Assembly: GCA_026928325.1 (NCBI GenBank)
Contig: JAIXKS010000007.1
Coordinates: forward strand, 62,001 to 126,000
Origin: Chitinophagales bacterium
Lineage (GTDB): Bacteria; Bacteroidota; Bacteroidia; Chitinophagales; Saprospiraceae
Direction: 5' to 3'
DNA length: 64,000 bases
The translations under genes and the position numbers were made by a program. This document shows, one piece after another, positions 30,101 to 48,674 of this stretch. The number at the start of each line of letters is the position of its first letter. The stretch's first letter is position 1. The notes below the pieces were generated by a model. It was not told where the DNA came from, made no database searches, and saw nothing but the letters and a program-made list of their open reading frames with translations.

Positions 30101-33100
30101 TTAGAGCCTGACCACTTTAAACGCTAGGATTTGGCTAGCATCGTATAATACTAGCATATAAACTCCATGTTGATAGGCTTCCATATCGATGGTAAATTTG
30201 TCATTTTGAATATCTGGTTTGGCTTCGTCGAGTACGCTTCCATGCATATCCATTAAAACATATTTATCAATTGGCTTTTTGGTCACAACCGTTAGAATAT
30301 TCCTAACTGGGTTAGGATAAATGGCCACTTCTGGAAGTGCTTCATTTGAAACAGCCGTGATTTCTTCTATTATAAAATGCCCTTCTATTTGACATCCATA
30401 GTCATCCGTAACAGTTACACTATATATCCCTGCTTTAAGACCTTCGATACATCTATAATTGACTTGCCCATTACTCCATTCAAACCGATAAGGCGGTGCT
30501 CCATTATCAATGTGGATACAAATCCGACCATCAGAACCGCCATTGATCTCATGTTCGATATCGGCGACCAGTTTCATTTTGGATTGTGCCGTGATTAAAA
30601 TTGTATCTATTGACAGCATACAACCTACATCGTCCATCACAAATCCATAGTATTGTCCATTCGGCAGATTATAGAGTTCGGCACCTGCATATTGGCCATT
30701 ATTCCATATAATATCAAATGGTTGGTTGCTACCAATGAGCTTGAGGCGAATTATACCCAAAGAGTCATTTTGACAAACATTATTGGCAGTTTCTAATATT
30801 TCGTATTTGAATACCGGAAATTCAGGGATGATAATAGTATTGGAAACTCCGGTACAACCATCGCTATCGGTTATCGTCAATTCGTATCTGCCGGATGCAA
30901 GGTTGAAAATCGTATCTCGAATTGCAGCGTTAAAATATTGGCTTCCATGACTCCAGTTGTAATCAAAAATTGGCGAACCGTTAGCTATAAACGCCGCAAT
31001 AGCCGCATTGGCTTCACCATAACAAGTATTATTAAGGATTTGGTCAAGATGTATCTCTATGGCTGTATTGATATAAGGCACTTCAATATCAGGAATACCC
31101 GATTTACAACCGAGTTGATCATAAACGGTCACATTGTAATGGCCTCGCGGAATACTATCCAATATATTACTTGTGCTACTTTGTTCATTCCATACATAAA
31201 AATAGGCACCATTTCCTCCTCTACTCTGTAAGCGAATTTGACCATTTCCTCCTAAAATACAAGTCGCAGGGAGGATGCTGTCCACAAATACTTCTAGTGG
31301 ATCGGGCTGAACTATTACGATTGATTCTGTTATTGCAGCGCATCCATTCGCATCTGTAACCGTCAAGGTATAAATTCCAGCTTTGATATTAAATATATCG
31401 TCATCTGTATAGCTATAGTTATTCCATAGATAGGTATAACCCGGTTTTCCTCCTGAAACGTTGGTCTTGATAGATCCGTTAGCTTCTCCAAAACAGCGCA
31501 CATGCTCTGTGCTTACCACCTGAACTTTTAATGGGTCGTAGTCCACCAATTCGGTCTCTAAGATATATTGACATGCATTATCATCTGTAATCGTACAAGT
31601 ATATTGACCCGAAGATAAATGCGTTATCCGACTGGTCATCTGTCCATCTTCCCACTGATATGCATAAGGTGGATTTCCATTGATGGCGAACACTTCGAGG
31701 AAGCCGTCTTCTTTTCCAGAACACGTTGGGTTGGCCTTGGCACTGATGCCTGCAATGACGGAAGGTTTCGCCGATAGCTTAATATCCGACAGAACAGCAA
31801 AACACTGATTTGCATCTGTAACTGTAACATTGTAAACACCTTCTGCGGCATTATCCAAATCTCGATTAGTCATTCCATTAGACCACAGATACGTGTAGGG
31901 CGGCGCATCTAAGGAGTGAGAAATGGCCACTACCCCATCCGATTTACCTAAACAAGAAGGCGCCAGCAAATCTTTGACAATGATGTTTAATGTATTGGTG
32001 GGTTGAATCTTATAAAAATCGGTATGCAAGATACAGCCACCTATATCCGTAATCGTAGCATAATAAATACCGGTTTTGAGGTTGGTAATACTTTCGCCAG
32101 TTTTTCCGTTATTCCAAGTAACTTCATACGGCGGATTTCCTCCTACAATCGTGAGTTGGATACTTCCATCTGCGGATCCATTGCAAGAAGAATCATAGAT
32201 TTGCTCTTGAACTAATATCGGATTTACAGCCGGCTGATCATCTTCATTTCCATTACAATTCTCATCGATGCCGTTACATTGAATTTCTTTAGCTCCCGGG
32301 TGAATTTCCGCATTATCATCGTCACAATCTCCCGAAATCAGGACATAACCCGAGGGTGCTTCTGATGCACAAGACAAAATAAAGTCTCGATCTGTACCAT
32401 ATCCATCACCATCTACATCCCGATAATAAGTATTCAAACCCGCAGCCGGTATAGATTTATAAAATTCGATTTGGTCTATCGCAATATCTCCCAATGGCCC
32501 GTCTCCTGAAATGGCTATAAACCTAAAAACACCTAATTGTCCATCAAAATCCTTGAGCGATAAGGTGTGCTGAATCCATCGATTACCATGGTCGCCACCA
32601 GTTGTAAACAACGTGTTCCAAGTCAAGCCACCATCCACGGACAATTCTAATTTAAGAGCTTCAATATCAGATCCATACATATGATAGTAGAACGACATAT
32701 CACATCCAGATGCATTGCTCAGGATTTGCATACACGTTGACTCGAGGATGGCTTGATTTTGTTGACCACATAGCTGAGGATTGTTTTCTATATATAGAAA
32801 TTTTCCCGTACCATTGATGTCTCCATCAGCGCCCGTAAACTCTGTTTCTGTTTTGCCTTGTATCAAAATCCAATCTTGCGCGTCTTCATTCGTATTATTA
32901 AACCAAATAGATCCGGTATTGGTACAATGCACAATACAACTTGGCTCGCATACATCATAATTATCAAAGCTTTCTGCTATGGAAATCGGTTCACAAGATG
33001 TAGAAGCATAGATAAGGCATCCATCCGAAGAAGACTGTGAATGAGTACAAAGCGACGTAATCGAAAATCCGTATTCTGTATTGGGTTTCAAATTATCAAT

Positions 33101-34114
33101 CGTAAAATACGCCTCTCGACAAGGTACAAAAAAAGAATCCACAGCGATATCGCCTTCAAAAACCCGAATACTAACCGTATTGCACGGCTCTTTAAAGTCC
33201 CACCCTACTGTAATTTCGTTAATATCCGTATTTAGCACCGTAAAATGATCGGGTACAATACAAGCATCATCACTAAAAGTGATATTCATGTATTTCAAAA
33301 TCCCTGCATCTTTTACCGCACGATCGAAGGTAATCAACCTCCAATTGCCCTTGTTTAAGGTATCCGCCTGCCATGTCGCCAAGTCCCCATCCGGGTGAAA
33401 AGCGCCAACGAAAGGAGGTTTGAAGTCTTTCAGATATCTGCAGCCATCCATCGAAAACGAGGTAAACTGTGTACAAGTTGAGTCTTGAAGGATTCCAAAA
33501 TTTCGAGTAACAGTTCCATTGTGATTAGATAGCAAAAGTTGCTGGCCTTGTGGGCTTTCTAAGATGATTTTCAAATCTGCAGGCCAAGCGTGTTCTAATA
33601 TCAAATCCACTGATTTAAGGAAGATATTAGTACCCAAAATGGGATTTTGCAACGTTTTTAAATAAGGAATATCAATATCTAGGACTTCAATTCCATTGTC
33701 TTTAAGCGGAATATTCAGTTGACAAGCCGAAGGTATCTCTATCACCGTAGTAAAAGGAATAGCGACATTCCATTGGCTTCTACTACCTGCACAAACGGTT
33801 CTAATATACAAATCGTAAGAAGTCGAAGGAGTGAGGTTTTGAAGAACAACGGTCTTGTTTGTTTGCAAAGGCAATGATGGCGTACCAGTTTGCGCAGCTC
33901 CACGTTTGACCACTTCGATTTCCCAGCCATCAGGCTGATTATTGATATCCGACCAGGTAACGGTAATGGCCGTAGTCGATTTGTTTTCAAAACGAATATT
34001 AAAAGGAATATTGCATGGTTGTGCTTGGGTTGCAACTATATTTAGAAACAACAAAATCCATACACATCCGAAATACTTTTTTATATATTCAACCACTTCG
34101 ATCCTTTTAAGCAA
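30101..34114 (-). CDS. Giant SprB-repeat surface protein with T9SS type A signal
   Basis: About 1337 aa with a TTG start at 34114; a GTG six codons in is the alternative, and both give a signal peptide ending T-Q-A-Q. Domain order: fibronectin type III (about 35-125), a P/proprotein-convertase-like jelly roll (about 130-280), a second Fn3, a MAM-like domain with C-D-M-S-F-Y-Y-H-M, a MopE-like Asp/Cys motif (D-V-D-G-D-G-Y-G), then eight SprB repeats (C-x-G-x-x-x-G ... P-Y-x-x-x-W-x-N-G ... G-x-Y-x-V-T-V-T-D). A type A sorting domain (I-Y-P-N-P-V-R-N) ends it. It probably is an adhesin on or released from the cell surface. No catalytic site was seen. Confidence 0.87.
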   Translation of the reverse strand: MLKRIEVVEYIKKYFGCVWILLFLNIVATQAQPCNIPFNIRFENKSTTAITVTWSDINNQPDGWEIEVVKRGAAQTGTPSLPLQTNKTVVLQNLTPSTSYDLYIRTVCAGSRSQWNVAIPFTTVIEIPSACQLNIPLKDNGIEVLDIDIPYLKTLQNPILGTNIFLKSVDLILEHAWPADLKIILESPQGQQLLLSNHNGTVTRNFGILQDSTCTQFTSFSMDGCRYLKDFKPPFVGAFHPDGDLATWQADTLNKGNWRLITFDRAVKDAGILKYMNITFSDDACIVPDHFTVLNTDINEITVGWDFKEPCNTVSIRVFEGDIAVDSFFVPCREAYFTIDNLKPNTEYGFSITSLCTHSQSSSDGCLIYASTSCEPISIAESFDNYDVCEPSCIVHCTNTGSIWFNNTNEDAQDWILIQGKTETEFTGADGDINGTGKFLYIENNPQLCGQQNQAILESTCMQILSNASGCDMSFYYHMYGSDIEALKLELSVDGGLTWNTLFTTGGDHGNRWIQHTLSLKDFDGQLGVFRFIAISGDGPLGDIAIDQIEFYKSIPAAGLNTYYRDVDGDGYGTDRDFILSCASEAPSGYVLISGDCDDDNAEIHPGAKEIQCNGIDENCNGNEDDQPAVNPILVQEQIYDSSCNGSADGSIQLTIVGGNPPYEVTWNNGKTGESITNLKTGIYYATITDIGGCILHTDFYKIQPTNTLNIIVKDLLAPSCLGKSDGVVAISHSLDAPPYTYLWSNGMTNRDLDNAAEGVYNVTVTDANQCFAVLSDIKLSAKPSVIAGISAKANPTCSGKEDGFLEVFAINGNPPYAYQWEDGQMTSRITHLSSGQYTCTITDDNACQYILETELVDYDPLKVQVVSTEHVRCFGEANGSIKTNVSGGKPGYTYLWNNYSYTDDDIFNIKAGIYTLTVTDANGCAAITESIVIVQPDPLEVFVDSILPATCILGGNGQIRLQSRGGNGAYFYVWNEQSSTSNILDSIPRGHYNVTVYDQLGCKSGIPDIEVPYINTAIEIHLDQILNNTCYGEANAAIAAFIANGSPIFDYNWSHGSQYFNAAIRDTIFNLASGRYELTITDSDGCTGVSNTIIIPEFPVFKYEILETANNVCQNDSLGIIRLKLIGSNQPFDIIWNNGQYAGAELYNLPNGQYYGFVMDDVGCMLSIDTILITAQSKMKLVADIEHEINGGSDGRICIHIDNGAPPYRFEWSNGQVNYRCIEGLKAGIYSVTVTDDYGCQIEGHFIIEEITAVSNEALPEVAIYPNPVRNILTVVTKKPIDKYVLMDMHGSVLDEAKPDIQNDKFTIDMEAYQHGVYMLVLYDASQILAFKVVRL

Positions 34115-34358
34115 TCAAAATTAAGTATAAAAATGCAAACCAGCCTATCTTTTGCTATATAAATACAGATTTTAACAAAAAACATAAAAACTACCTGGAT
34201 CTATTGGTTTAAAAGTTTATCCGTGTAAAGGTGTAATTTTGATTGTTGATTTGTGGAATCGTTGGATTTGTCGAGTTGGATTAATTGGTTTAAAGGTGTA
34301 AGGGTTTAATTTTTATTGTTGATTTGTGGAGTTGTTAGATTTGTGGAGTTGATTTTAC

Positions 34359-34521
34359 TAGTGCTCTGTCCATAAAAAGACTTAAATTATAATGGAAGTT
34401 ATTTTTTTAAAGCTCAAGGCAAAAAACGCAGGCGAACCAAGTGGTTCGGTGAGGCTTTTTAACGCAGAGATTTGGAAAAAGAACGACATTTTATTAAGAT
34501 CTTTTTGTTGACGGAGCACTA
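34359..34521 (+). mobile_element. Full 163-bp gtgctctgtc inverted-repeat element, copy in block 1
   Basis: Runs from tagtgctctgtc to gacggagcacta, with TA at both ends. The centre holds the hairpin cgaacca-ag-tggttcg. No ORF of useful size is present, so it is non-autonomous. Inside an L block of the repeat field. Confidence 0.85.
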
Positions 34522-34546
34522 TACGAAAGAGACGTCTCTTTCGTAT
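34521..34546. repeat. 26-bp perfect palindrome next to the element
   Basis: The half-site atacgaaagagac is followed directly by its exact reverse complement. The same palindrome occurs at 34982-35007 and 35863-35888, always adjoining the right end of a full element, so it was copied with the L block. Confidence 0.85.
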
Positions 34547-34819
34547 TCAGTTTGACATTAGTGTTTGTCGTCCCGACAACATGACCATTCGATAAGCTTA
34601 GCGTCCTCGCTAAGTTTGATATTAGTGTTTGTCGTCCCGACAACATGAACGAATAAATGCCATTTGGATCTATTGGTTTAAAGGTTTAAAGGTGTAATTT
34701 TTATTGTTGATTTGTGGATTCGTTGGATTTGTCGAGTTGGATTAATTGGTTTAAAGGTGTAAGGGTTTAATTTTTATTGTTGATTTGTGGAGTTGTTAGA
34801 TTTGTGGAGTTGATTTTAC

Positions 34820-34982
34820 TAGTGCTCTGTCCATAAAAAGACTTAAATTATAATGGAAGTTATTTTTTTAAAGCTCAAGGCAAAAAACGCAGGCGAACCA
34901 AGTGGTTCGGTGAGGCTTTTTAACGCAGAGATTTGGAAAAAGAACGACATTTTATTAAGATCTTTTTGTTGACGGAGCACTA
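34820..34982 (+). mobile_element. Full 163-bp inverted-repeat element, copy in block 2
   Basis: Same sequence as 34359-34521 by eye. Because the flanking block is also the same, this copy most likely arose by block duplication and not by separate insertion. Confidence 0.85.
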
Positions 34983-35700
34983 TACGAAAGAGACGTCTCT
35001 TTCGTATTCAGTTTGACATTAGTGTTTGTCGTCCCGACAACATGACCATTCGATAAGCTTAGCGTCCTCGCTAAGTTTGATATTAGTGTTTGTCGTCCCG
35101 ACAACATGAACGAATAAATGCCATTTGGATCTATTGGTTTAAAGGTTTAAAGGTGTAATTTTTATTGTTGATTTGTGGATTCGTTGGATTTGTCGAGTTG
35201 GATTAATTGGTGGATTTATAGGTTTAAGGGTTGATACGTGTAAGAGTTTAATTTTTACTCTGATAAGCTTAGTGTCCTCACTAAGTTTGACATTAGCGTT
35301 TGTCGTCCCGACAACATGAACGAATAAATGCCATTTGGATCTATTGGTTTAAGGGTTTAAAAGTGTAATTTTGATTGTTGATTTGTGGAATCGTTAGATT
35401 TGTCGAGTTGGATTAATTGGTGGATTTATAGGTTTAAGGGTTGATACGTGTAAGAGTTTAATTTTTACTCTGATAAGCTTAGTGTCCTCACTAAGTTTGA
35501 CATTAGCGTTTGTCGTCCCGACAACATGAACGAATAAATGCCATTTGGATCTATTGGTTTAAAGGTTTAAAGGTGTAATTTTTATTGTTGATTTGTGGAT
35601 TCGTTGGATTTGTCGAGTTGGATTAATTGGTTTAAAGGTGTAAGGGTTTAATTTTTATTGTTGATTTGTGGAGTTGTTAGATTTGTGGAGTTGATTTTAC

Positions 35701-35863
35701 TAGTGCTCTGTCCATAAAAAGACTTAAATTATAATGGAAGTTATTTTTTTAAAGCTCAAGGCAAAAAACGCAGGCGAACCAAGTGGTTCGGTGAGGCTTT
35801 TTAACGCAGAGATTTGGAAAAAGAACGACATTTTATTAAGATCTTTTTGTTGACGGAGCACTA
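35701..35863 (+). mobile_element. Full 163-bp inverted-repeat element, copy in block 5
   Basis: Third copy with the same sequence and flanks as those at 34359 and 34820, again followed by the 26-bp palindrome. Confidence 0.85.
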
Positions 35864-36352
35864 TACGAAAGAGACGTCTCTTTCGTATTCAGTTTGACAT
35901 TAGTGTTTGTCGTCCCGACAACATGACCATTCGATAAGCTTAGCGTCCTCGCTAAGTTTGATATTAGTGTTTGTCGTCCCGACAACATGAACGAATAAAT
36001 GCCATTTGGATCTATTGGTTTAAGGGTTTAAAAGTGTAATTTTGATTGTTGATTTGTGGAATCGTTAGATTTGTCGAGTTGGATTAATTGGTGGATTTAT
36101 AGGTTTAAGGGTTGATACGTGTAAGAGTTTAATTTTTACTCTGATAAGCTTAGTGTCCTCACTAAGTTTGACATTAGCGTTTGTCGTCCCGACAACACGA
36201 ACGAATAAATGCCATATATTCGGAGCTATTACTTGCCCATAATGTTAAAGTAACGATTTTTTTGAAAATATTTTTAAATTTTGTTGGAAATATCAAAATA
36301 TTTATGCAATATTGCCCTGATTTATTTCATAACATTTGAAAAAATTAAAGTC

Positions 36353-38800
36353 ATGAAAAACATCATTATTACTGCAATTTTGACCCTAATAGTTAGTTTA
36401 GGATTTGGTCAAAACAAAGAAATACTCCGCAATCAGGCGGATTTTACAAAAGCGATGCAGGACTATATCGCTGCTGAGCTGAATGACGCAGATAAGATGA
36501 AAGCGGCACGGGAACAGTACGGTCACAGCTGCGTACCGGGTGTGACTGTAAGTGATGATGATATACGCCGTGAAGCGGGTGATGCGGCAAAGCACGATTT
36601 TATCAGGACTAATATAGAAAGGTATATGGCACTGTATTTTCCTGAGAGTAAAGTTATATCAGATACATTTGCTTGTGATAACGGAGGATTTGAAGATGAT
36701 TTTCTTTATTATTCAGGGTTTAGCAGTACCTTTACTAATGGTAGTAATACCTGTAACCCAAAGAATGGAGGTACACCGTCGGTATTTATTCCTGTTAGTA
36801 CATTGCCAACATTAAAAGAATTTGAAATTGTAACATCTGGTATAGACCCTATTACAGGGTTGCAAAAAGTAAAATTTGGCAATAAAGCATTGAAACTAAA
36901 TGACCCTTATAGTCATATCGATGGTGGATGTAATGGACATAGAGGTGTAAATAAGTTGGTTAAGCGATTTAAAGTAACCTCAGATAATAGGGATTTAACC
37001 GTATGGTATTCAATCGCTTTGGAAAACCCGCCAGGTCATTTGAATACCCAGCCCTTTTTTAGCATTAAATGTGATTTAGCACCATTTAGTGACTTGTGCT
37101 TTGATGCTCATATTTTAGATTGTGATAGTTTATATAGCCAACCAGGCTGTTCATACGCATTGATGGATGTTTTGGATTGGACATGTCATAAAATAAAAAT
37201 ACCAATGTCAGAAGTTGGTAAAATTGCTACTATTGAGATTACAATGGGTGATTGTGGTGAAAGTGCTCATAATGGGTATGCGTATATTGACGGATTCTGT
37301 GAAGAATGCGAAAATAGTTTATTAGGTTCAATATTAATAGACAGTATTGACTATCTTTCTTGCCATGGAGAGAAAGCTAGAATATGTGGTAGTTATATCG
37401 AACCAAATGTATGTGGAGAATGGTACTTAGATTCCGTATCAGTACCCGGTAAAATAATAGAAAATATATCGATTGATACGATCAATAAGCGATATTGTTT
37501 TGATTTACCTGTTTCAAATTTAGATTTATATACTACTAAAATTTTTGTTGCTGGATTTTTCAAAAAGAAAGGAGGAGGATATCTTCCGACTGTATTTAGT
37601 AATACGATAATTATCAAAACGTGGGATTATAAACCGTATCATACTATTGATGCTATAGTTAATGAATGCCATAATAATAATACGCCAAATAACATATCAG
37701 ACGATTATTATTATGTCACATTTAAGATTCAAACATATCAGGTAACAGATACTTGGGAATTGTCAAAACAGTTGTTGGATCCATATCCAAACGAATCGGG
37801 CTTTAGTATTCTCGGTTCGGGAATGGGAACAGATGCAATAACTGTCGGCCCGTTTTTTATACAGGAAGGAAGTTGGGAAGCGACGGTCACAATCGGAGAG
37901 TGTGTATATAAGCTGTTAATAACGCCACCAGATTATTGTAGTGGATGTGAGATCTTTAGGAAGCTGAAGATTTCTAAATTTCAGTGTATTGCAGGGTCTC
38001 CTGATACCTGGTCTTTTGATATCAATGTGCCTTATGCAGGCGGTGGTCAATATGAGCTTATACCTTCAAGTACAGCGTCTAAAAACTACAACCAGACCTA
38101 TACGATATATCCGGGAAATATAGGAACAGAATGTATGGAATATATACTTAAAACCATGGACTTGCCAACTTGTGAAGTTACATTTACAGTCTGTCCACCA
38201 AAGCCATGTGATGTGGAATGTGATATCGAAATCACTAATAGAACGTGGTCATGTGAAATGGATTTGAACGGTAACTATCAATATTATGTACATTTAGAAG
38301 GAAGTGGATATACTTGTTATTCAGTTGATGGAGGAACACTGCAATTATTTCCGTCAACAGGGATTATCGGTCCATTTACTACAGATGTAACTTTGGTATT
38401 GTATTATTGTCCTGCAATCTCAATAAACCCATGTGCCGATTGTGATGATTCTGACTGTTATAAAGTATTAAAAATATTTGAGCCGGATTGTGAAAACAAC
38501 AATGAACCAAATAACCCGATGCCCGTTGGACGGATAATATCCAATGCAGGAAATGAGCCTCAATCATCTGAAGTTAAAGTAATACCTAACCCAATAGAAA
38601 GAGATATGCTTCGGATTGTCTCCGGGTATGAAAAAACAAGTATTGACATCATAGATATCAATGGACGTTTGTTGGATAAAGTAACATTTGAAGCAAAAGA
38701 ACATATAATGGATGTAAGTCGCCTGACACAAGGCAGTTACTTCATCCGTTATCGGGATAATCATGGAAAGATTCGGTACATACATTTTGTTAAGTTATAA
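36353..38800 (+). CDS. Cys-rich secreted protein with T9SS type A signal
   Basis: 815 aa from the ATG at 36353, which gives a signal peptide ending G-F-G-Q; a 24-residue upstream extension is open but not signal-like. The mature part starts with a charged helical segment (about 20-100). A Cys-rich jelly-roll/MAM-like region follows, ending in A-H-N-G-Y-A-Y-I-D-G-F-C-E-E-C. Three or four further Cys-containing beta modules come next, then a type A sorting domain (V-I-P-N-P-I-E-R ... L-T-Q-G-S-Y-F-I). No enzyme motif is visible. The first ~250 coding bases look GC-richer than the rest. It is first in a pair with the type B gene downstream. Confidence 0.82.
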   Translation: MKNIIITAILTLIVSLGFGQNKEILRNQADFTKAMQDYIAAELNDADKMKAAREQYGHSCVPGVTVSDDDIRREAGDAAKHDFIRTNIERYMALYFPESKVISDTFACDNGGFEDDFLYYSGFSSTFTNGSNTCNPKNGGTPSVFIPVSTLPTLKEFEIVTSGIDPITGLQKVKFGNKALKLNDPYSHIDGGCNGHRGVNKLVKRFKVTSDNRDLTVWYSIALENPPGHLNTQPFFSIKCDLAPFSDLCFDAHILDCDSLYSQPGCSYALMDVLDWTCHKIKIPMSEVGKIATIEITMGDCGESAHNGYAYIDGFCEECENSLLGSILIDSIDYLSCHGEKARICGSYIEPNVCGEWYLDSVSVPGKIIENISIDTINKRYCFDLPVSNLDLYTTKIFVAGFFKKKGGGYLPTVFSNTIIIKTWDYKPYHTIDAIVNECHNNNTPNNISDDYYYVTFKIQTYQVTDTWELSKQLLDPYPNESGFSILGSGMGTDAITVGPFFIQEGSWEATVTIGECVYKLLITPPDYCSGCEIFRKLKISKFQCIAGSPDTWSFDINVPYAGGGQYELIPSSTASKNYNQTYTIYPGNIGTECMEYILKTMDLPTCEVTFTVCPPKPCDVECDIEITNRTWSCEMDLNGNYQYYVHLEGSGYTCYSVDGGTLQLFPSTGIIGPFTTDVTLVLYYCPAISINPCADCDDSDCYKVLKIFEPDCENNNEPNNPMPVGRIISNAGNEPQSSEVKVIPNPIERDMLRIVSGYEKTSIDIIDINGRLLDKVTFEAKEHIMDVSRLTQGSYFIRYRDNHGKIRYIHFVKL

Positions 38801-38815
38801 GTGATTATGTAATAA

Positions 38816-38851
38816 TTTTCTGAAAGCATACTTAGGTATGCTTTCAGAAAA
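38816..38851 (+). terminator. Perfect 16-bp inverted repeat between the two cargo genes
   Basis: Arms at 38816-38831 and 38836-38851 (ttttctgaaagcatac and its exact complement) with a ttag loop. A-rich and T-rich outer ends fit a bidirectional or attenuating terminator. The first in-frame ATG of the next gene (38838) lies inside the stem, favouring the start at 38871. Confidence 0.65.
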
Positions 38852-38870
38852 TTTAATCGATTTAAATAAT

Positions 38871-41800
38871 ATGTGTTATATCATAAGATACGGTATTGTT
38901 TTTTTTGTTATTTTGTTTACTAAAGCAGAGCTAATTGGACAGGCAGATGTAAAGTGCTATGGGAACGGAAACTTTGAATTTGGGATAGAAAAAGAACGGC
39001 AATCAATTTTTGAAGTACCTGTATTTCAAACGTTCAAAGTTCAGGATATAGACAATGACGGAATTCCTGAAATAATTGCCGTTAAAAATGCGGATTATAT
39101 TGTAGGAGCTTATTATTTAAATCGGGATATATTAATTATTAACTCTCAAACACTTGAAGTTGTAAATGAAATCAATACCTATTATTTTGCACCAAATTAT
39201 GGTAATTTTGTTATTACAGGAGATGAATTGGGCGGATATGAAATTATAGTTGCAGTTGCAGATAATGACGAAAATCCAAATCATGTCAGAGGCAAATTGG
39301 TTTGTTATCGTTCTGATGGAAGTATCAAATGGATATCGGATTTTAAGTATGGATCAGGCCATAGTGATAATATGTTTTTTTATCGTCTTGGAGGATGTTT
39401 ATCATTAGCCGATTTTAATCAGGACGGTATCCCGGAAGTGTATATTTTTAACGAAATATTTAATGCCCGGACCGGTAAAAAATTAGCTTATGGAGGTAAA
39501 CATGGACTTGGTGGATTACCAGGCATAACTATTGCAGCAGATTTGGATGACAATCCAAATGATCTGGAATTAGCTGCGGGATATACTATATACAAAGTTA
39601 AGATTACAAATTTAAATGGATTAGCAGGTAATGAAATGACACCATATAATATGCGTGTCAACGGAGATTTACTTGATGGATATACAGTGGTTGCCGATAT
39701 CAATGGTGACGGCAGATTGGATGTAATCGTAACACATAGTCGTCAGATTTCCATGATTTATGTATATACGTTAGCTGATTTGCAATGTTCTTTTATTGCG
39801 AAAAAGGTATTTTTTGTTGAACGATGGGATATTCTCGGATTTCCCGTAATAGGCAATTTTACAAATCAATCGGAAGTGGGCATGGTTCTGTTTACAAGAG
39901 ATACACTACATAAATTATCGTATATTGATTCAGAATTGTTGTCGGAAGATTGGCGATTAAAAATACAAGATAATAGCAATTATTATATATTTTTGTCCGC
40001 TTATGATTTTGATAATGACGGAATTCATGAATTTATATTTCGGGGTAAAGAAAATTTACAAGTGTTTAATGCAAAAGATAACACACCCGTAATGCTTGGT
40101 GGAGCTCACTGCAAGTCTGCTCCTACGCATGATCACGCTATGATTGCAGATATAAACAATATAGGTTCAGCAAGGATTTGTGTTCCGTGTTCGGATAGTG
40201 ATAAGAATTTTAAACCCGGCCACCTCACAATCTTCGGTCCACCCGAAGGCCAGCATTGGGCACCGGCCCGCAATATCTGGCATCAGTTTGGCTACAATCC
40301 GCTTTTCATCAACGATGACGGTACAGTACCGCAACACATGCACAATCCTGCGACCTACAAGAACGGTAAGTACAACAACTTCAATGTGCAGGAAAACCTG
40401 CTTGACGGAGACGGTAAGATACCTGCCGCCTCGCTGTACGGCGATATCCCTTGTATCGGCTACGATGTGGATACAGACAGCTACCATGTAAGCTTTACGG
40501 TGCGCAACCGAGCAGATGCGTCCGCCACAGCAAAGACCAATGTCCCTGTCGCCTTTTACACAGGCGACCCGGAGCGTGACGGCAGGCTGATCGGCGTATA
40601 TCATACCACGGCAAGCATCACGGCAGGAGAAAATACAGGTACGCTGAGCTATAGCTTTCCTGCATCAGGCGTTACATCGCTGTGGATGGTGGTCAATACA
40701 GACAGATATCCGATGATACTGAGCGACTCATCGTACTACAGCATCGATGAGTGCGACTATACAGACAATGTATTTATAGCAGAACTTCCAAAGATACAAA
40801 GACAAGAGCAGGAAATCTGCGAGGGCGATACAGTGGATTTTTACGGTCAGCAGTTGAGTACAGCAGGACAATATCACTACAAGCTGAGGTCAGCAACGGA
40901 CTGTGACTCACTCATCGCCATACTCGACCTGACCGTTACCGATAAGAAAGATGAAGCAGTCACAGACATAGCTTGCGATACCTATACCTGGAACGGTCAG
41001 ACCTACGACCGCAGTGGCGACTACGAGTATCGCACAACAAGTATATCGGGTTGTGACAGCATCGTCACGCTAAGCCTGTCGATACATCCATCCATCCAAC
41101 AAACAGAGGTACAAACCACCTGCGAGCGCTACGAGTGGAACGGACAGACCTACACAACAAGTGGTATATTTACCTACAACGGACAAACAAGTCAGGGCTG
41201 TGACAGTACCGTCACGCTAAATCTCACGATACATTCCAAAGCAGAGTCCATACAACAAATATCCGTATGCGACAGCTACGAATGGAATGGTCAAAGGTAC
41301 GATCAGAGCGGCACTTATACCTACAACGGACAGACAAAGCAAGGTTGCGACAGCACCGCCATATTGGAGTTGGTCATATCCACTTCACTGACCGTAACCG
41401 AAGAAAAAACGGCCTGTGACCAGATCATCATCAACGGCATCACCCTGGATACCAGTGGCGACTATCCGGAAAGTTATCTGACAAGTACCGGCTGCGACTC
41501 CACGCACATCCTTCGGCTGACGATACACAAATCTACACAAAGCAATCAGGCAATAACCGCTTGTGAGGAATATGATTTTTTTGGCAGCACGAAAACAGAA
41601 AGCGGCATATATCGCCACACACTGACCAACCAACAAGGCTGTGATTCGCTCATCACGCTCGATCTGCGCATCGCAGCCGAAGCATCACAAGCGATAGCAA
41701 CCGCCTGTGGTAGCTACCACTGGGCAGCAGGCGACACGACGATAACGAATAGTGGCGTTTACACGACACGATACTTGAACCAATACGGCTGCGACTCGAC

Positions 41801-42425
41801 CATCACACTATCGCTCAACATCGCACCCGAATACGATATCCAAAAGCAGGAAGAAGCCTGCGGCAATTTTACCTGGTCGGTAACAAAGGAGCGATATACA
41901 GCAACCGGCATATATAGCCAACTACTGAAAACAGCACAGGGCTGCGACTCGCTCATCACACTCGACCTGACGATACATCCAGAGTTTGAATACCACGATA
42001 CAGTAAGCACCACATCGTCCTACTACTGGCCACTCAACGGACAAACCTACGACCAATCGGGTGTTTACACGGAGTTATTCCGTACGGAAGCCTCGTGCGA
42101 CTCTATCCATGTCCTACACCTACGGGTCAGTTACAACACAGACATCTACTTCCCAAATGTCATCACGGGCGAAGGCAGCAACGGATATTTTACAGGATAT
42201 AGCACGACGAAAGGCACACAAATCCGATCGTTATCAGTCTTCGACCGCTGGGGCAATCGGGTATTTCACCGAGAGCACTTCGCTACGAATGAACCGGAGG
42301 CAGGTTGGGATGGGAAGTTTGGCGGCAAGGATGTAGTACCGGGCGTATATATTTGGACGGCGCAGATCGTACATAGCGATGGCAGAGAGGAGACTTTTTC
42401 TGGGGATGTGACGGTAGTTAGGTGA
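38871..42425 (+). CDS. Large secreted FG-GAP/Cys-repeat protein with T9SS type B signal
   Basis: 1184 aa from the ATG at 38871, chosen for its signal peptide (I-V-F-F-V-I-L-F). An FG-GAP/VCBS propeller (D-I-D-N-D-G-I-P-E, D-F-N-Q-D-G-I-P-E, D-I-N-G-D-G-R-L-D) ends at W-A-P-A-R-N-I-W-H-Q-F-G-Y-N-P. A CARDB-like domain and about nine Cys repeats follow (C-x-x-Y-x-W-N-G-Q-x-Y ... G-C-D-S). The final ~85 residues (V-F-D-R-W-G-N-R-V-F ... G-V-Y-I-W) form a type B sorting domain. No protease domain is present, unlike its apparent paralogue at 9641-15091. From about 40180 on, codons become clearly GC-richer. Probable surface adhesin. Confidence 0.87.
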   Translation: MCYIIRYGIVFFVILFTKAELIGQADVKCYGNGNFEFGIEKERQSIFEVPVFQTFKVQDIDNDGIPEIIAVKNADYIVGAYYLNRDILIINSQTLEVVNEINTYYFAPNYGNFVITGDELGGYEIIVAVADNDENPNHVRGKLVCYRSDGSIKWISDFKYGSGHSDNMFFYRLGGCLSLADFNQDGIPEVYIFNEIFNARTGKKLAYGGKHGLGGLPGITIAADLDDNPNDLELAAGYTIYKVKITNLNGLAGNEMTPYNMRVNGDLLDGYTVVADINGDGRLDVIVTHSRQISMIYVYTLADLQCSFIAKKVFFVERWDILGFPVIGNFTNQSEVGMVLFTRDTLHKLSYIDSELLSEDWRLKIQDNSNYYIFLSAYDFDNDGIHEFIFRGKENLQVFNAKDNTPVMLGGAHCKSAPTHDHAMIADINNIGSARICVPCSDSDKNFKPGHLTIFGPPEGQHWAPARNIWHQFGYNPLFINDDGTVPQHMHNPATYKNGKYNNFNVQENLLDGDGKIPAASLYGDIPCIGYDVDTDSYHVSFTVRNRADASATAKTNVPVAFYTGDPERDGRLIGVYHTTASITAGENTGTLSYSFPASGVTSLWMVVNTDRYPMILSDSSYYSIDECDYTDNVFIAELPKIQRQEQEICEGDTVDFYGQQLSTAGQYHYKLRSATDCDSLIAILDLTVTDKKDEAVTDIACDTYTWNGQTYDRSGDYEYRTTSISGCDSIVTLSLSIHPSIQQTEVQTTCERYEWNGQTYTTSGIFTYNGQTSQGCDSTVTLNLTIHSKAESIQQISVCDSYEWNGQRYDQSGTYTYNGQTKQGCDSTAILELVISTSLTVTEEKTACDQIIINGITLDTSGDYPESYLTSTGCDSTHILRLTIHKSTQSNQAITACEEYDFFGSTKTESGIYRHTLTNQQGCDSLITLDLRIAAEASQAIATACGSYHWAAGDTTITNSGVYTTRYLNQYGCDSTITLSLNIAPEYDIQKQEEACGNFTWSVTKERYTATGIYSQLLKTAQGCDSLITLDLTIHPEFEYHDTVSTTSSYYWPLNGQTYDQSGVYTELFRTEASCDSIHVLHLRVSYNTDIYFPNVITGEGSNGYFTGYSTTKGTQIRSLSVFDRWGNRVFHREHFATNEPEAGWDGKFGGKDVVPGVYIWTAQIVHSDGREETFSGDVTVVR

Positions 42426-42440
42426 TTACCTAAGTTTAAA

Positions 42441-44200
42441 GGTTTAAGGGTGTAAAGGTGTAATTTTTATTGTTGATTTGTGGAATCGTTGGATTTGCTG
42501 ATTCGTTGGAGAAATTGGTGGATTTAAAGGTTTAAGTGTGTAAAGGTGTAATTTTTATTGTTGATTTGTGGAATCGTTGGATTTGCTGATTCGTTGGAGA
42601 AATTGGTGGATTTAAAGGTTTAAGTGTGTAAAGGTGTAATTTTTATTGTTGATTTGTGGAATCGTTGGATTTGCTGATTCGTTGGAGAAATTGGTGGATT
42701 TAAAGGTTTAAGTGTGTAAAGGTGTAATTTTTATTGTTGATTTGTGGAATCGTTGGATTTGCTGATTCGTTGGAGAAATTGGTGGATTTAAAGGTTTAAG
42801 TGTGTAAAGGTGTAATTTTTATTGTTGATTTGTGGAATCGTTGGATTTGCTGATTCGTTGGAGAAATTGGTGGATTTAAAGGTTTAAGTGTGTAAAGGTG
42901 TAATTTTTATTGTTGATTTGTGGAATCGTTGGATTTGCTGATTCGTTGGAGAAATTGGTGGATTTAAAGGTTTAAGTGTGTAAAGGTGTAATTTTTATTG
43001 TTGATTTGTGGAATCGTTGGATTTGCTGATTCGTTGGAGAAATTGGTGGATTTAAAGGTTTAAGTGTGTAAAGGTGTAATTTTTATTGTTGATTTGTGGA
43101 ATCGTTGGATTTGCTGATTCGTTGGAGAAATTGGTGGATTTAAAGGTTTAAGTGTGTAAAGGTGTAATTTTTATTGTTGATTTGTGGAATCGTTGGATTT
43201 GCTGATTCGTTGGAGAAATTGGTGGATTTAAAGGTTTAAGTGTGTAAAGGTGTAATTTTTATTGTTGATTTGTGGAATCGTTGGATTTGCTGATTCGTTG
43301 GAGAAATTGGTGGATTTAAAGGTTTAAGTGTGTAAAGGTGTAATTTTTATTGTTGATTTGTGGAATCGTTGGATTTGCTGATTCGTTGGAGAAATTGGTG
43401 GATTTAAAGGTTTAAGTGTGTAAAGGTGTAATTTTTATTGTTGATTTGTGGAATCGTTGGATTTGCTGATTCGTTGGAGAAATTGGTGGATTTAAAGGTT
43501 TAAGTGTGTAAAGGTGTAATTTTTATTGTTGATTTGTGGAATCGTTGGATTTGCTGATTCGTTGGAGAAATTGGTGGATTTAAAGGTTTAAGTGTGTAAA
43601 GGTGTAATTTTTATTGTTGATTTGTGGAATCGTTGGATTTGCTGATTCGTTGGAGAAATTGGTGGATTTAAAGGTTTAAGTGTGTAAAGGTGTAATTTTT
43701 ATTGTTGATTTGTGGAATCGTTGGATTTGCTGATTCGTTGGAGAAATTGGTGGATTTAAAGGTTTAAGTGTGTAAAGGTGTAATTTTTATTGTTGATTTG
43801 TGGAATCGTTGGATTTGCTGATTCGTTGGAGAAATTGGTGGATTTAAAGGTTTAAGTGTGTAAAGGTGTAATTTTTATTGTTGATTTGTGGAATCGTTGG
43901 ATTTGCTGATTCGTTGGAGAAATTGGTGGATTTAAAGGTTTAAGTGTGTAAAGGTGTAATTTTTATTGTTGATTTGTGGAATCGTTGGATTTGCTGATTC
44001 GTTGGAGAAATTGGTGGATTTAAAGGTTTAAGTGTGTAAAGGTGTAATTTTTATTGTTGATTTGTGGAATCGTTGGATTTGCTGATTCGTTGGAGAAATT
44101 GGTGGATTTAAAGGTTTAAGTGTGTAAAGGTGTAATTTTTATTGTTGATTTGTGGAATCGTTGGATTTGCTGATTCGTTGGAGAAGTTGGTGGATTTATA
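42441..44200 (+). repeat. Tandem array: 20 copies of an 88-bp unit
   Basis: Unit starts ggtttaagtgtgtaaaggtg and ends gaaattggtggatttaaa. Starts fall at 42441 + 88n, with the 21st position (44201) opening the next repeat type. Internal units look identical. The first (ggtttaaggg) and last (gaagttgg, ttata) differ slightly, as expected for edges. 88 is not a multiple of three and no ORF runs through it. There are no unique spacers, so it is not CRISPR. Confidence 0.95.
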
Positions 44201-44640
44201 GGTTTAAGGGTTTATACGTGTAAGAGTTTAATTTTACTCCGATAAGCTTAACCTCCTCGCTAAGCTTGCAGTTAGCGTTTGTCGTCCCGACAACATGAAC
44301 GAATAAATGCCATTTGGATCTATTGGTTTAAGGGTTTAAAAGTGTAATTTTGATTGTTGATTTGTGGAATCGTTAGATTTGTCGAGTTGGATTAATTGGT
44401 GGATTTATAGGTTTAAGGGTTGATACGTGTAAGAGTTTAATTTTTACTCTGATAAGCTTAGTGTCCTCACTAAGTTTGACATTAGCGTTTGTCGTCCCGA
44501 CAACATGAACGAATAAATGCCATTTGGATTAATTGGTTTAAAGGTTTAAGGGTGTAATTTTTATTGTTGATTTGTGGAATCCTTAGATTTGTAGAACTGG
44601 TGGAATTGCTGGAATTGGTGGAATTACTAAATTGTAGAAA
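44201..44640 (+). repeat. S-type repeat blocks downstream of the cargo pair
   Basis: A diverged partial S block (44201-44315), a full 210-base S block (44316-44525) and a partial block that fades into gaattggtgg-like steps near the prfB stop. The full block has the same phrases and direction as those at 35127-36218, on the other side of the two cargo genes. Confidence 0.85.
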
Positions 44641-44648
44641 TTTTTCAA

Positions 44649-45729
44649 TCAATTTCCATCCCACATAAGGAAAGCCTTCAGGAAGCCATCGAGCTCACCA
44701 TCTAGTACTGCCTCGGTGTTTCTTGTTTCAAAGCCTGTTCTGTGATCCTTGACTCTACGGTCATCCAATACATAGGAACGTATCTGAGAACCCCATTCGT
44801 TTTTCATTTTTTGGGCTTCTATTTTATCTCTTTCTTCGCGTTGCTTTTCGAGTTCAATCTGGTAAAGCCTGGATTTGAGCATTTGCATGGCTTTTTCTCT
44901 ATTCGCATGTTGAGATCTAGCTTCTTGACATTGGATAGCTATTCCGGTAGGCAAGTGTTTGATTCTAACGGCAGTTTCTACTTTGTTTACATTTTGACCT
45001 CCTGCGCCCTGTGCTCTAAACGTATCCCATTCGATCTCGGAAGGGTTAATTTGAATATCTATCGTATCGTCAATCAAAGGATGCACAAAGACAGAAGCAA
45101 AAGAAGTCATCCGTTTGCCTTGGGCATTAAAAGGGCTCACGCGTACTAAGCGATGAACACCATTTTCGCCTTTGAGCATTCCGTAGGCATACACACCATC
45201 AATCTCGATAGATACTGACTTAATACCCGCAACATCGCCAGCTACATAATCCACTTCTGCAACGCCATAACCATTTTTATCGGCCCACATTTTAAACATT
45301 CGGTATAGCATGGATGTCCAATCACAAGCTTCAGTTCCACCTGCACCTGCATTGATTTCCAAAGTGCAACTCAATTTATCTTCCGGCTTATCTAAGGTCG
45401 TCCTAAACTCGATTTCATCCAATAGCGATAAAATCTCCTGATATTTTTCATTTGCCTCTTCTTCTGTAGCTTCTCCTTCTCTCACAAACTCCATCAAGAC
45501 TTCGGCATCGTCTGCTTTAGATTCAAGTTCTTTATAAACTTCAACCCATTTTTTGTTGTCTTTGAGTGATTTTAAAATGGCTTCTGCTGATTCTGGATTA
45601 TTCCAGAATTCAGGATTAAGGGAAAGTTGTTCTTGGTCTTCTATTTGCAATAATCGATTATCAACGTCAAAGATACCTCCTTACCGATGTCAATCGCTCC
45701 CGTATATCAGCTAACTGTTCTATGGTCAT
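44649..45729 (-). CDS. prfB: Peptide chain release factor 2, with programmed +1 frameshift
   Basis: RF2 ends translation at UGA and UAA. The long frame (44649-45668) has the stop-recognition S-P-F motif and catalytic G-A-G-G-Q-N-V-N-K, but no ATG start. A second frame begins with ATG at 45729 ([13 protein letters not shown]), runs 20 codons and reaches AGG AGG TAT CTT TGA C. This matches the well-known RF2 frameshift site: Shine-Dalgarno-like AGGAGG, slippery CTT and in-frame TGA. Skipping one base (45669) joins the frames into 359 residues, a normal length. It autoregulates RF2: low RF2 favours frameshifting. Confidence 0.95.
45666..45681 (-). promoter_or_regulatory. RF2 +1 recoding site
   Basis: On the minus strand: AGG AGG TAT CTT TGA C. 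The internal AGGAGG lies three bases before CTT, the spacing used in known bacterial prfB genes. TGA is at 45667-45669. Confidence 0.93.
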
Positions 45730-45812
45730 TGCCCTGCATGTTTAAAAGTAAGTAAAAAACACCGATAGTCAATTACAAATTCAAATATCGGTGCTCATTT
45801 TTTTAATTCTTC

Positions 45813-45974
45813 TAGTGCTCTGTCTATAAAAAGGCTTAAATAATAATGGAAGTTATTTTTTTAAAGATCAAGGCAAAAAACGCAAACATAGTGATAACTA
45901 TGGCGAGTATTTTTAACGATGAGATTTGAAAAAAGAACGACATTGCATTAAGATCTTTTTGTTGACAGAGCACT
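45813..45974 (+). mobile_element. Full inverted-repeat element, first of a tandem pair
   Basis: Runs from tagtgctctgtc to gacagagcact. The central hairpin is catagt-gata-actatg instead of the cgaacca type seen at 34-36 kb. No coding potential. It shares a single T with the next copy, with no full TA between them. Confidence 0.85.
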
Positions 45975-46136
45975 GTGCTCTGTCTATAAAAAGGCTTAAA
46001 TTATAATGGAAGTTATTTTTTTTAAAGATCAAGGAAAAAAACGCAGACATAGTGGTAACTATGGCGAGTATTTTTAACGATGAGATTTGAAAAAAGAACG
46101 ACATTGCATTAAGATCTTTTTGTTGACAGAGCACTA
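45975..46136 (+). mobile_element. Full inverted-repeat element, second of a tandem pair
   Basis: Runs from gtgctctgtc to gacagagcacta, with central hairpin catagt-ggta-actatg. It ends 7 bases before the convergent FKBP stop codon. Differences from the first copy are few, suggesting a tandem duplication. Confidence 0.85.
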
Positions 46137-46142
46137 AAATTA

Positions 46143-47042
46143 TTAACGATTTTGGATATCATTTAGTTCAACGTAGAAAAGTAAATTTGCTTGCGCTGGA
46201 ATAACTGGTGGGCTTCCTGCCTCACCATAAGCTAATTCATAAGGAATAAACAAGAAACCTTTTGAACCTTTATTAAAATGCGTAAAGCCCTCATCCCAAC
46301 CACGGATAACCATCCCTTGTCCTACAACGAATGAAAATTCTTGTCCTCTAGAGAAGGAGTCATCAAATTTAGTTCCATCCATCAAAGTTCCATAATAGTC
46401 TGCATTAATGACTTGGCCACTTTGAGTATTATCTCCTGTTCCTTGCTCGACGATATAATACTCAAGCCCTGAAGGTGTTTTTTCTGTTTTCAACTTACCT
46501 GCTTTATAAGCGTCTAGAGTAGATTTAACCAAAGCTTCAATTTCAGGAAGTCTTGCTTGTTGTAAAGCTGCCTTAGCAGCCATTTCTGCTTGTGCTTCTT
46601 GCTGTTTTTGGTTGAAAGCTTCTTCGTCAACTATTTTTTTGATAGTAAAATAATACACAAAGTTTTCGATATGCGGGTATTCGGCTCTTGCACCTGGAAG
46701 AGAATCTAATGGCATATATAGTTTATACTCTGCGCCTACTTTAGCATGTGACAATTTAAAAACGTCAATAATTGGATTAGACTGTGGTCCAGTAGGGAGT
46801 TCCTCCGGAATTCTCAATACCGGCAAGTCATTCTCATCATTCATCTCATTAATCAGTTCTGTATCGTCACCTAAAACCTTTATTGTGAAATACACATAAT
46901 CATCATCTTTAATAGATTCACCAGTACCTTCATTCAGAACTTCATATTTAAAACCGCCCGGGGTTGTAGTTTCCGAATTGGTTTTACAGGAGGTAAATAA
47001 AACTCCTGCTAATAATAAAAATGCAAAATGCTTAAAATTCAT
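46143..47042 (-). CDS. FKBP-type peptidyl-prolyl isomerase lipoprotein
   Basis: 299 aa. Lipoprotein signal with lipobox F-T-S-C (about residue 19). An N-terminal FKBP-like domain (G-F-K-Y-E-V-L-N-E-G-T-G-E ... V-Y-F-T-I-K-V) appears degenerate. A charged helical linker (E-A-F-N-Q-K-Q-Q-E-A-Q-A-E-M-A-A-K-A) precedes a complete FKBP domain: V-I-N-A-D-Y-Y-G-T-L-M-D-G-T-K-F-D-D-S, then V-I-R-G-W-D-E-G and I-P-Y-E-L-A-Y-G-E. It should catalyse proline isomerisation in folding of envelope proteins, outside the inner membrane. Confidence 0.9.
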   Translation of the reverse strand: MNFKHFAFLLLAGVLFTSCKTNSETTTPGGFKYEVLNEGTGESIKDDDYVYFTIKVLGDDTELINEMNDENDLPVLRIPEELPTGPQSNPIIDVFKLSHAKVGAEYKLYMPLDSLPGARAEYPHIENFVYYFTIKKIVDEEAFNQKQQEAQAEMAAKAALQQARLPEIEALVKSTLDAYKAGKLKTEKTPSGLEYYIVEQGTGDNTQSGQVINADYYGTLMDGTKFDDSFSRGQEFSFVVGQGMVIRGWDEGFTHFNKGSKGFLFIPYELAYGEAGSPPVIPAQANLLFYVELNDIQNR

Positions 47043-47113
47043 TGTTTCAATGTTTGTTTAAAAATAAAAATTCACTTCAAATATAAATTCGACAGCCCAA
47101 AGGTTGTCTTTTT

Positions 47114-48118
47114 TTAATTAACTTTAGGTAAATGCTCAGGAATAACCCTTTTCAAACGGTTGATGACGTCTTTTAGGGATGCATACACGCCGCCTCCTGC
47201 TGCATTTTTATGTCCACCGCCATTAAAATGTTTTTGTGCTATCTCTTGAACGGAAACATCATCCTTGCTGCGCAAAGAAATTTTTACAATCGTTGGTTGC
47301 TCCAAAATCAATGCTGCTATTTTGACCTTTTCAATCATCAACATGTAATTGACAATGCCTTCTGTATCGCCTCTTTGAATATCGAAATCCTGATAGTCTT
47401 TTTTACTCAACCACATAATACCGGCTCCATAATCTTGCAAAATCTCCATTCTATTGGCCAAACAATGCCCTAACAATCTAAGATGACGTTCCTTCTGCGC
47501 ATTATAGATTTTATTATTTAATCCATAATCATCCACGCCGATACCTTTCAGAATTGCTGCTGTTTCGTAGGTTTGAGGTCTCGTGTGGTATTTAAACGAA
47601 CCTGTATCTGTAATAATGCCCATAAAAAGGCTTTCGCCAATATATCGGTCTATCTTACCTCTATCTCCCAATTGGTCAATCACTTGAAATATCATTTCGC
47701 AGGTACTACTAGCTTCGATATCTGAAATCAAAATATCAGGAAAAGGTTCAGGATCTAAGTGATGGTCTATCACAACTTTTTTAGCTTTCGAAAACTTAAC
47801 ATTTTCTCCCAACTTGTCTATCCGATCTAACCCACTAAAGTCAAGGCAAAAAATCAAATCCGCACGATCTATAATTTTTCTAGCCTTATCCGGTTCTAAA
47901 TCAAAGATGGTCGATTGCTGAATTCCTCTGACAAACTCGTACGTAGAGGAATATTCACTTGGAAAAACAACGTTTACATTATGATGTTTATTCTTGAGAT
48001 ACCCGGCCAAGCCCAATGATGAACCAATGGCATCACCATCAGGGTTGCGATGTGAAATAATGGCTATTTCCTTAGGTAGGATCAGTAAATCCTTTAATTC
48101 CTTCAATTCTTCCGTCAT
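47114..48118 (-). CDS. DHH/DHHA1 phosphoesterase (NrnA-like)
   Basis: 334 aa from the ATG at 48118; an upstream ATG at 48151 is possible. The DHH domain has S-H-R-N-P-D-G-D-A-I-G-S, then the D-H-H motif (V-I-D-H-H-L-D-P), and the DHHA1 domain ends with G-G-G-H-K-N-A-A-G-G. Members break down nano-RNA (2-5 nt) and may hydrolyse pAp to AMP. It is divergent from ndk, with about 125 bases between the starts. It is cytoplasmic and soluble. Confidence 0.9.
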   Translation of the reverse strand: MTEELKELKDLLILPKEIAIISHRNPDGDAIGSSLGLAGYLKNKHHNVNVVFPSEYSSTYEFVRGIQQSTIFDLEPDKARKIIDRADLIFCLDFSGLDRIDKLGENVKFSKAKKVVIDHHLDPEPFPDILISDIEASSTCEMIFQVIDQLGDRGKIDRYIGESLFMGIITDTGSFKYHTRPQTYETAAILKGIGVDDYGLNNKIYNAQKERHLRLLGHCLANRMEILQDYGAGIMWLSKKDYQDFDIQRGDTEGIVNYMLMIEKVKIAALILEQPTIVKISLRSKDDVSVQEIAQKHFNGGGHKNAAGGGVYASLKDVINRLKRVIPEHLPKVN

Positions 48119-48198
48119 AATGGCCGCAAAATTGAGTATTTTAAATGTCATATCAAAATATTTTTTTGCTTTTTCGTTACTTATGAAATATGATTTTA

Positions 48199-48665: not shown

Positions 48666-48674
48666 TATTTCATA

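What the first reader, a model, noticed from the sequence alone, without database searches (positions are those of the whole stretch)
34197..44525. T9SS cargo pair flanked by direct 210-bp repeat blocks
The full S block at 36008-36218 and the one at 44316-44525 are in the same direction and enclose exactly two large cargo genes. Recombination between them could delete, amplify or exchange the pair. This looks like a system for varying surface proteins by homology, without a dedicated integrase.
Basis: partly seen in the sequence, partly recalled or inferred. Interest (0 to 1): 0.7.

Follow-up and report, generated by a model that had tools for sequence, protein, structure and literature searches.

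The report
Recombining two-gene bacterial surface-adhesin family
The two genes between the repeats are one of several scattered copies of a surface-adhesin gene pair in which variable heads are joined to nearly identical start and stalk regions, so this bacterium and its relatives appear to reshuffle what they show on their surface by ordinary DNA recombination.

Summary
The repeat observation is correct: window 36008-36218 recurs at 44316-44523 with one mismatch, same direction, with two T9SS cargo genes (c1, c2) between. S itself is a dispersed repeat: 95 hits in 37 clusters, 27 of them away from any c1/c2 gene. The main finding lies inside the genes. c1-c2 is a multi-locus family (six c2 copies, five with c1 or part of it). 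A 390-bp stretch (end of S to codon ~50 of c1) is identical at three loci, while the c1 bodies are mostly at dS ~1 to saturation. c2 switches near residue 444-484 from divergent FG-GAP heads (47-70% DNA identity) to stalks 79-96% identical. The same mosaic occurs in G009 and G006, and heads were probably exchanged between G007 and G001. The relative G009 lacks the pair at this site. So variation by homology is supported, but the homologies at the breakpoints are the c1 start and c2 stalk; S-to-S excision is not shown. Strain-level switching could not be tested. Stalk GC3 is unusually high (43-63% against 20-31% in the same genes' heads), hinting at GC-biased conversion, with counterexamples.

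The parts
34196..36218 (+). Left S-family array: 461-bp and 210-bp spacings, three R elements, ending in the S block 36008-36218
36008..36218 (+). S block upstream of c1; its last part (from 36115) is inside the stretch identical at C2, C8 and C42
36115..36504 (+). Identical segment: end of S, spacer and first ~50 codons of c1 (390 bp identical at C8; 421 bp, to 36535, at C42; 160 bp, to 36274, at C68)
36281..38800 (+). c1: T9SS type A cargo (Por_Secre_tail), conserved leader, divergent body (ORF from TTG; ATG at 36353)
38838..40205 (+). c2 variable head: FG-GAP (propeller-type) domain, residues 1 to ~456
40206..42425 (+). c2 shared stalk and CHU_C tail, residues ~457-1195, 79-96% identical between loci, GC3 about 57%
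42435..44194 (+). 88-bp S-related direct tandem array, 20 units
44104..44616 (+). Right S-family blocks: 44104-44313 (87%), 44316-44523 (99.5%), 44526-44616 (84%)

Best explanation
This is one locus of a dispersed family of T9SS adhesin-like gene pairs in a Saprospiraceae bacterium. c1 has a constant start and a variable body; c2 has a variable FG-GAP (propeller-type) head on a constant stalk with a T9SS tail. Homologous recombination (gene conversion or double crossover) between copies uses the constant c1 start (with the end of S) on one side and the c2 stalk (with the 3' S-like repeats) on the other. It keeps those parts alike within a genome while the segment between them (c1 body plus c2 head) is kept as old divergent variants, reshuffled, and sometimes exchanged between species. 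Shown: the copies, the mosaic borders, the within-species homogenisation, the empty site in a relative. Inferred: that RecA-type recombination does it, that the heads bind ligands, that S adds homology or is carried along. Not shown: switching within a population.
For: Six c2 copies linked to S in the genome (C2, C8, C42, C68, C35, C56) plus two distant ones. c1 residues 1-50: dS 0 in 3 of 3 pairs; from residue 91 on dS about 1 to saturated, except C2-C8 at 641-735 (0.29). c2 head DNA identity 47-70% among the six; stalk 79-94% (ignoring cells that fall in N gaps) and up to 96%. MaxChi on third positions: c1 3 of 3 pairs 0/1000; c2 among the six copies 10 of 15 pairs 0/300, 2 at 4-5/300, 3 not significant (all with C35, whose contig ends 39 codons into the stalk); break residues 444-484 in those 12. 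Same in G009 (head 52%, stalk 98%, break 464, 0/300; stalk 72-76% to G000) and G006 (head 39-58%, stalk 82-96%, switch near codon 505, head type FG-GAP_2). G007-G001: c2 head pS 0.02-0.14 while ndk, dhh and prfB have 0.82-0.85. Three of the four large N gaps lie in c2 stalks and the fourth spans the c1 start and body. Empty site in G009. The distant paralog C8b, more than 40 kb from any S hit, shows no significant break with any of the six (53 to 265 of 300).
Against: No strain or read data, so timing and switching are unknown. The genomes are fragmented assemblies; exact identity in shared parts may be inflated by repeat collapse. MaxChi with shuffled sites tests uneven divergence, not recombination alone: 6 of 12 G000-G009 comparisons also reach 0/300, with a weaker step (about 35-39% to 53-70%), and the G000-G009 stalk (pS 0.58-0.61) is less diverged than core genes (0.73-0.83), so the stalk is also somewhat conserved or exchanged between species. 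Three of 15 pairs not significant. Exchange is not limited to one unit: a c1 patch shared by C2 and C8 (641-735), and a 60-75% stretch between two 90-100% stretches in G007-G001. c1 at C68 is reduced to 142 aa. C56 begins inside its head, not in a shared part. The G007-G001 exchange rests on a 5.6-kb contig of an 83%-complete bin.
Confidence: 0.8

Rival explanations
1. S blocks are the working part: recombination between the two direct S copies excises, amplifies or re-inserts the whole pair, solo S copies being landing sites or scars. Not exclusive with the best explanation.
For: S-family sequence on the left at 5 of 5 and right at 4 of 4 loci with a flank; the 9 of 9 best S copies are there; G009 site empty; S blocks without a pair at C20 (92% over 290 bp to the right block) and C8:121 kb (core 98.7% over 78 bp); in G006 a different repeat brackets the C25 pair on both sides as direct copies, and 5 of its 6 longest copies (>=179 bp) lie beside c1/c2 genes, the sixth (C81) not examined.
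Against: No empty site with a single S and no junction reads; G009 has no S hit at all, so its empty site is not an excision scar; breakpoints map to leader and stalk; 27 of 37 S clusters have no c1/c2 gene nearby.
Confidence: 0.25
2. Ordinary old paralogs: leader and stalk are alike only because protein function constrains them, heads diverge by relaxed or diversifying selection.
For: Stalk dN is low (0.02-0.07 among the six for segments of 100 codons or more), and the stalk is somewhat conserved between species too.
Against: Likeness extends to synonymous and non-coding sites: dS 0 and a 390-bp identical stretch across spacer and leader; stalk dS 0.27-0.58 in G000 (one 39-codon comparison with C35 gives 1.1) and 0.07 in G009 beside heads at dS ~0.9 to saturation; stalks more alike within than between species.
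Confidence: 0.04
3. Assembly or binning artefact: repeat collapse or mixed strains created the mosaics and the perfect arrays.
For: Large N gaps and several contig ends lie in the shared parts; 18 perfect 88-bp units are hard to assemble from short reads; the G001 contig is small.
Against: Mosaics recur in three separately assembled species, in G000 and G009 at the same place in c2; C2, C8 and C68 are long contigs with different flanks; heads are 47-70% identical, so the loci are not strain alleles.
Confidence: 0.08
4. A dedicated system (site-specific inversion, integrase cassette or diversity-generating retroelement) makes the variation.
For: None positive; Bacteroidota are known for such systems (recalled).
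Against: S copies are direct, not inverted; variation spans about 450 residues including third positions, unlike adenine-targeted mutation (inference); the 11 ORFs listed for 30-50 kb show no recombinase by eye, but only four were domain-searched. Integrase and reverse transcriptase genes were not searched for in the genome.
Confidence: 0.05

Closest known systems
Porphyromonas gingivalis kgp / rgpA / hagA T9SS adhesin-domain rearrangement (PMC5266723, passages read)
   Same: T9SS surface proteins with identical repeated segments shared between loci, contig breaks in those segments, domain rearrangement and allelic exchange proposed
   Different: There proteinases and a haemagglutinin of one species; here a two-gene unit at several loci, variable N-terminal head and c1 body, constant stalk, flanking intergenic repeats, several species
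Gene-conversion antigenic variation families (pilE/pilS, vlsE, vlhA; recalled, nothing read)
   Same: Many homologous copies with constant ends and variable cores, homology-driven
   Different: No single expression site with silent copies seen: C2, C8 and C42 share the same upstream region and leader; no host immune pressure known
Vibrio cholerae Bap1/RbmC matrix adhesins (PDB 6mlt; that this entry is Bap1 is recalled; PMC10102183 seen in a listing with the start of its abstract)
   Same: c2 residues 369-502 match the chain called Hemolysin-related protein, E 4.7e-9, including a W..A..IW.Q motif
   Different: T9SS stalk and tail instead of the Vibrio modules; no ligand known
REP-type intergenic repeats (recalled)
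   Same: S core is a dispersed ~65-bp unit with two possible hairpins, 92.8% of cells paired
   Different: No excess of double changes over shuffles (248/500); no Y1 transposase directly beside S shown

Membership tests
T9SS cargo proteins | C-terminal sorting domain | tested here: met
   c1 Por_Secre_tail 33.6 bits (cut-off 27), TIGR04183 29 (cut-off 23); c2 CHU_C 29.1 (cut-off 27); c2 TIGR04131 22.5, below its cut-off 35
T9SS cargo proteins | Secretion by T9SS | not testable with these tools
   needs bench work
Gene-conversion surface variation | Several homologous copies in one genome | tested here: met
   six S-linked c2 copies; c1 complete at C2, C8 and C42, reduced at C68, partly in an N gap at C35, not in the assembly at C56
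Gene-conversion surface variation | Mosaic copies with synonymous-site breakpoints | tested here: met
   repeated in G009 and G006
Gene-conversion surface variation | One expression site plus silent donors | tested here: inconclusive
   C2, C8 and C42 carry the same upstream sequence and leader over 390 bp, which speaks against it; expression itself is not testable here
Gene-conversion surface variation | Change within clonal populations | not testable with these tools
   no strain or read data
Invertible shufflon / phase inversion | Inverted repeats around the switched segment | tested here: not met
   S copies direct; the 4 inverted pairs of 30 bp or more found in 30000-50000 are R element ends
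Diversity-generating retroelement | Reverse transcriptase with template repeat | not tested
   no search spent on it
REP/RAYT | Y1 transposase beside the repeat | tested here: inconclusive
   3 PF01797 matches in the genome, 2 on C51 about 1.4-4 kb from weak S-like hits

The most novel reading that the evidence does not exclude
A genus-wide pool of exchangeable adhesin heads recombined onto constant stalks, in which the constantly converting stalk has become a GC-rich island by GC-biased gene conversion. Stalk GC3 is 54-63% in the measured S-linked copies of G000 and in G009, and 43-48% in G006 L-copies and G007, against 20-31% in heads of the same ORFs and 28-33% in four paralog stalks (C8b, C68b, G6_C11, G6_C168) that are mostly not homogenised. 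Third-position changes among three G000 stalks are balanced (56 AT>GC, 54 GC>AT), which by my arithmetic puts the stalk at its own equilibrium near 56% rather than decaying to the local median of 35%.
Probability: 0.25. Interest if true: 0.85.

Novelty: new variant of a known kind. Interest (0 to 1): 0.62.

Why it matters
It gives an uncultured group of Bacteroidota a recombination-based surface-variation system with a clear anatomy (variable head, constant stalk, paired secreted partner) seen in several species, outside the pathogens where such systems are usually studied. It also offers a within-gene comparison, same ORF and so presumably the same expression, in which the homogenised and non-homogenised halves differ by about 30 points of GC3: a possible test bed for GC-biased gene conversion in bacteria. 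It would explain why these genomes break in assembly at these genes.

Tried and rejected
Rejected: a different C-terminus for c2 at C8 and an internal swap at C56, which seemed to show; one search found N gaps there (L053 6507-8581, L070 1345-2696), as for most of c1 at C35 (L056 16799-17316). Cells that fall in these gaps were ignored. Rejected: S as a T9SS-specific block genome-wide. Corrected: one search gave 38 clusters because the 88-bp array was pasted as one placeholder row; with all 95 rows there are 37 (10 at c1/c2 genes, 27 elsewhere). The C28 cluster, at a contig start, is counted as elsewhere. Weak: hairpin covariation of the S core (92.8% of cells paired against 32-42% when slid, but 248/500 shuffles reach the number of double changes). 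Weak: Y1 transposase link. GC-biased conversion: Spearman 0.76, n 20, between stalk GC3 and best same-genome stalk identity; sequences are not independent; 3 of 23 rows left out (G0_C35 too short, G1_C82 and G3_C19 without a same-genome partner). Rfam: 0 matches in 30000-50000. Structure prediction never started: machine busy in 14 tries.
Full report
Observation. The window is G000:C2:62001-126000 of a 3.72-Mb, 74-contig genome. Of four named relatives of c1 in a public collection, three are titled Saprospiraceae and one Aureispira. The S block at 36008-36218 recurs at 44316-44523 with one mismatch in 208 and in the same direction, around two T9SS cargo genes.

What S is. S has 95 hits in the genome, which merge into 37 clusters; 10 flank c1/c2 genes and 27 do not. 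Of the 27, 6 lie within 2 kb of a gene with a T9SS tail (133 Por_Secre_tail and 27 CHU_C matches at E <= 0.001, some below the curated cut-off), against at most about 28% of the genome by a simple bound, so no preference. But the 9 hits with at least 94% identity over at least 100 bp are all at c1/c2 loci, 4 of them in the window. The common core of the family is about 65 bp with two possible hairpins. S gives no hit in G009 and only hits of 24-73 bp in 8 other relatives out of 59 searched.

The family. c1 has paralogs at C8 (67%) and C42 (50%) and fragments at C68 and C35; c2 has paralogs at C68, C42, C8, C35 and C56, two distant ones (C68b, C8b), weaker matches elsewhere, and an end piece at C5. 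S precedes c1 at 5 of 5 loci with a left flank, and S-family sequence follows c2 at 4 of 4 with a right flank (C2, C68, C56, and C8 beyond an N gap), plus the C5 end piece. At C68 c1 is reduced to a 142-aa ORF; at C35 most of c1 is an N gap.

Mosaic structure. From 36115 to 36504 (C8) or 36535 (C42) the DNA is identical to the window, across the end of S, the spacer and the start of c1. c1 residues 1-50 have dS 0 in all three comparisons; from residue 91 on dS is about 1 to saturated, except a C2-C8 patch at 641-735 (dS 0.29). In c2 the head (46-455) is 47-70% identical in DNA among the six copies, while the stalk is 79-96% identical where both sequences exist. MaxChi places the change at residue 444-484 with 0/300 shuffles in 10 of 15 pairs and 4-5/300 in 2; 3 pairs, all involving C35, are not significant. 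MaxChi is not proof by itself: 6 of 12 G000-G009 comparisons also reach 0/300 with a weaker step. The dS values and the within-species likeness carry the argument. A sequence match to PDB 6mlt (Bap1, as I recall) covers residues 369-502, so the border falls near the last conserved motif of that match. The distant paralog C8b, which has no S hit within 40 kb, shows no significant border with any of the six; C68b, whose right flank is the S block of C68, shows one with three of them, at 1168 for C2 and C68 and at 490 for C56.

Other species. In G009 two copies have heads 52% and stalks 98% identical (dS saturated against 0.07), while their stalks are 72-76% identical to those of G000 (dS 1.1-1.3): the stalks are homogenised within species. 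In G006 two c2 genes with another head type (FG-GAP_2) switch from 39-58% to 82-96% identity near codon 505, and one pair is bracketed by direct copies of a different intergenic repeat; that repeat has 70 hits, and 5 of its 6 longest copies lie beside c1/c2 genes. Between G007 and G001 the c2 heads have pS 0.02-0.14 and the stalk 0.44 (56 codons), against 0.82-0.85 in ndk, dhh and prfB; along the pair, identity in 60-base steps runs 70-100% (c1), 60-75% (c1 end to c2 start), 91-100% (c2 head), 86-95% (stalk), with unlike upstream flanks. If the small G001 contig is mis-binned the transfer claim falls, but the mosaic remains.

The site. In G009, which has the highest full-length prfB identity (89%), the orthologues of the left and right neighbours are 219 bp apart, against 10,534 bp here. 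None of nine relatives' prfB loci shows c1 or c2; seven of the nine have more than 2.2 kb of sequence on that side, the distance at which c2 lies here.

Composition. The stalk is GC-rich at third positions (54-58% in the five G000 copies measured, 60-63% in G009, 43-47% in the four G006 L-copies) against 20-31% in the heads of the same ORFs. Other window genes have a median of 35% and a 99th percentile of 55% in 696 60-codon windows. Balanced AT>GC and GC>AT changes (56 and 54, polarised by majority of three copies) argue against a decaying foreign insert. Counterexamples are listed under Tried and rejected. I hold GC-biased conversion as an open, testable reading.

Mechanism. Best read as homologous recombination among copies, pivoting on leader and stalk, with S as extra or hitch-hiking homology. 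The recombination enzyme, frequency and ligand are inferred. Literature: searches of the open-access library showed, in their listings (one search listed 12 of 159), no Saprospiraceae or FG-GAP-head case of this kind; the nearest seen is the P. gingivalis adhesin work (PMC5266723, passages). In F. psychrophilum a 10-kb inverted repeat with an adhesin, a PorP/SprF-family protein and an outer membrane protein flanks an inversion (PMC5808330, passages), a different arrangement. Type B tails are reported to associate with PorP-like proteins (PMC9143113, title and start of abstract only).

Noticed in passing
34359-34522, 34820-34983, 35701-35864, 45813-45974, 45975-46136, 48675-48837: R: a 161-164-bp element with ends TAGTGCTCTGTC / GACGGAGCACTA, 65 hits in the genome, sometimes head to tail; looks like a MITE inserting at TA. 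G006 carries a similar element (seen by eye).
   Followed up: partly
42435-44194: 20-unit 88-bp direct tandem array, 18 units identical, strong GC skew (0.78 in 43001-44000); unit number may be an assembly product.
   Followed up: partly
9644-15091: 1816-aa T9SS gene distantly related to c2 with GC3 up to 70% in 60-codon windows; the C59 gene (L167 2028-4946) has a similar step from low to high GC3 after its first ~220 codons. Their paralogs were not searched.
   Followed up: partly
L166 1543-7713: 2057-aa ORF with a 953-bp internal repeat at 94% identity, not GC-rich.
   Followed up: no
L102 3207-4199: Gene downstream of the G006 pair looks like a PorP/SprF-type protein (recalled from its sequence), a possible anchor partner.
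   Followed up: no
30101-34114: Neighbouring 1337-aa T9SS cargo with MAM, fn3, P-domain and SprB repeats, 59% identical in G009.
   Followed up: partly
L151 784-2715: A Y1-transposase match on C51 with a weak S-core-like stretch about 1.4 kb away; probably chance.
   Followed up: partly
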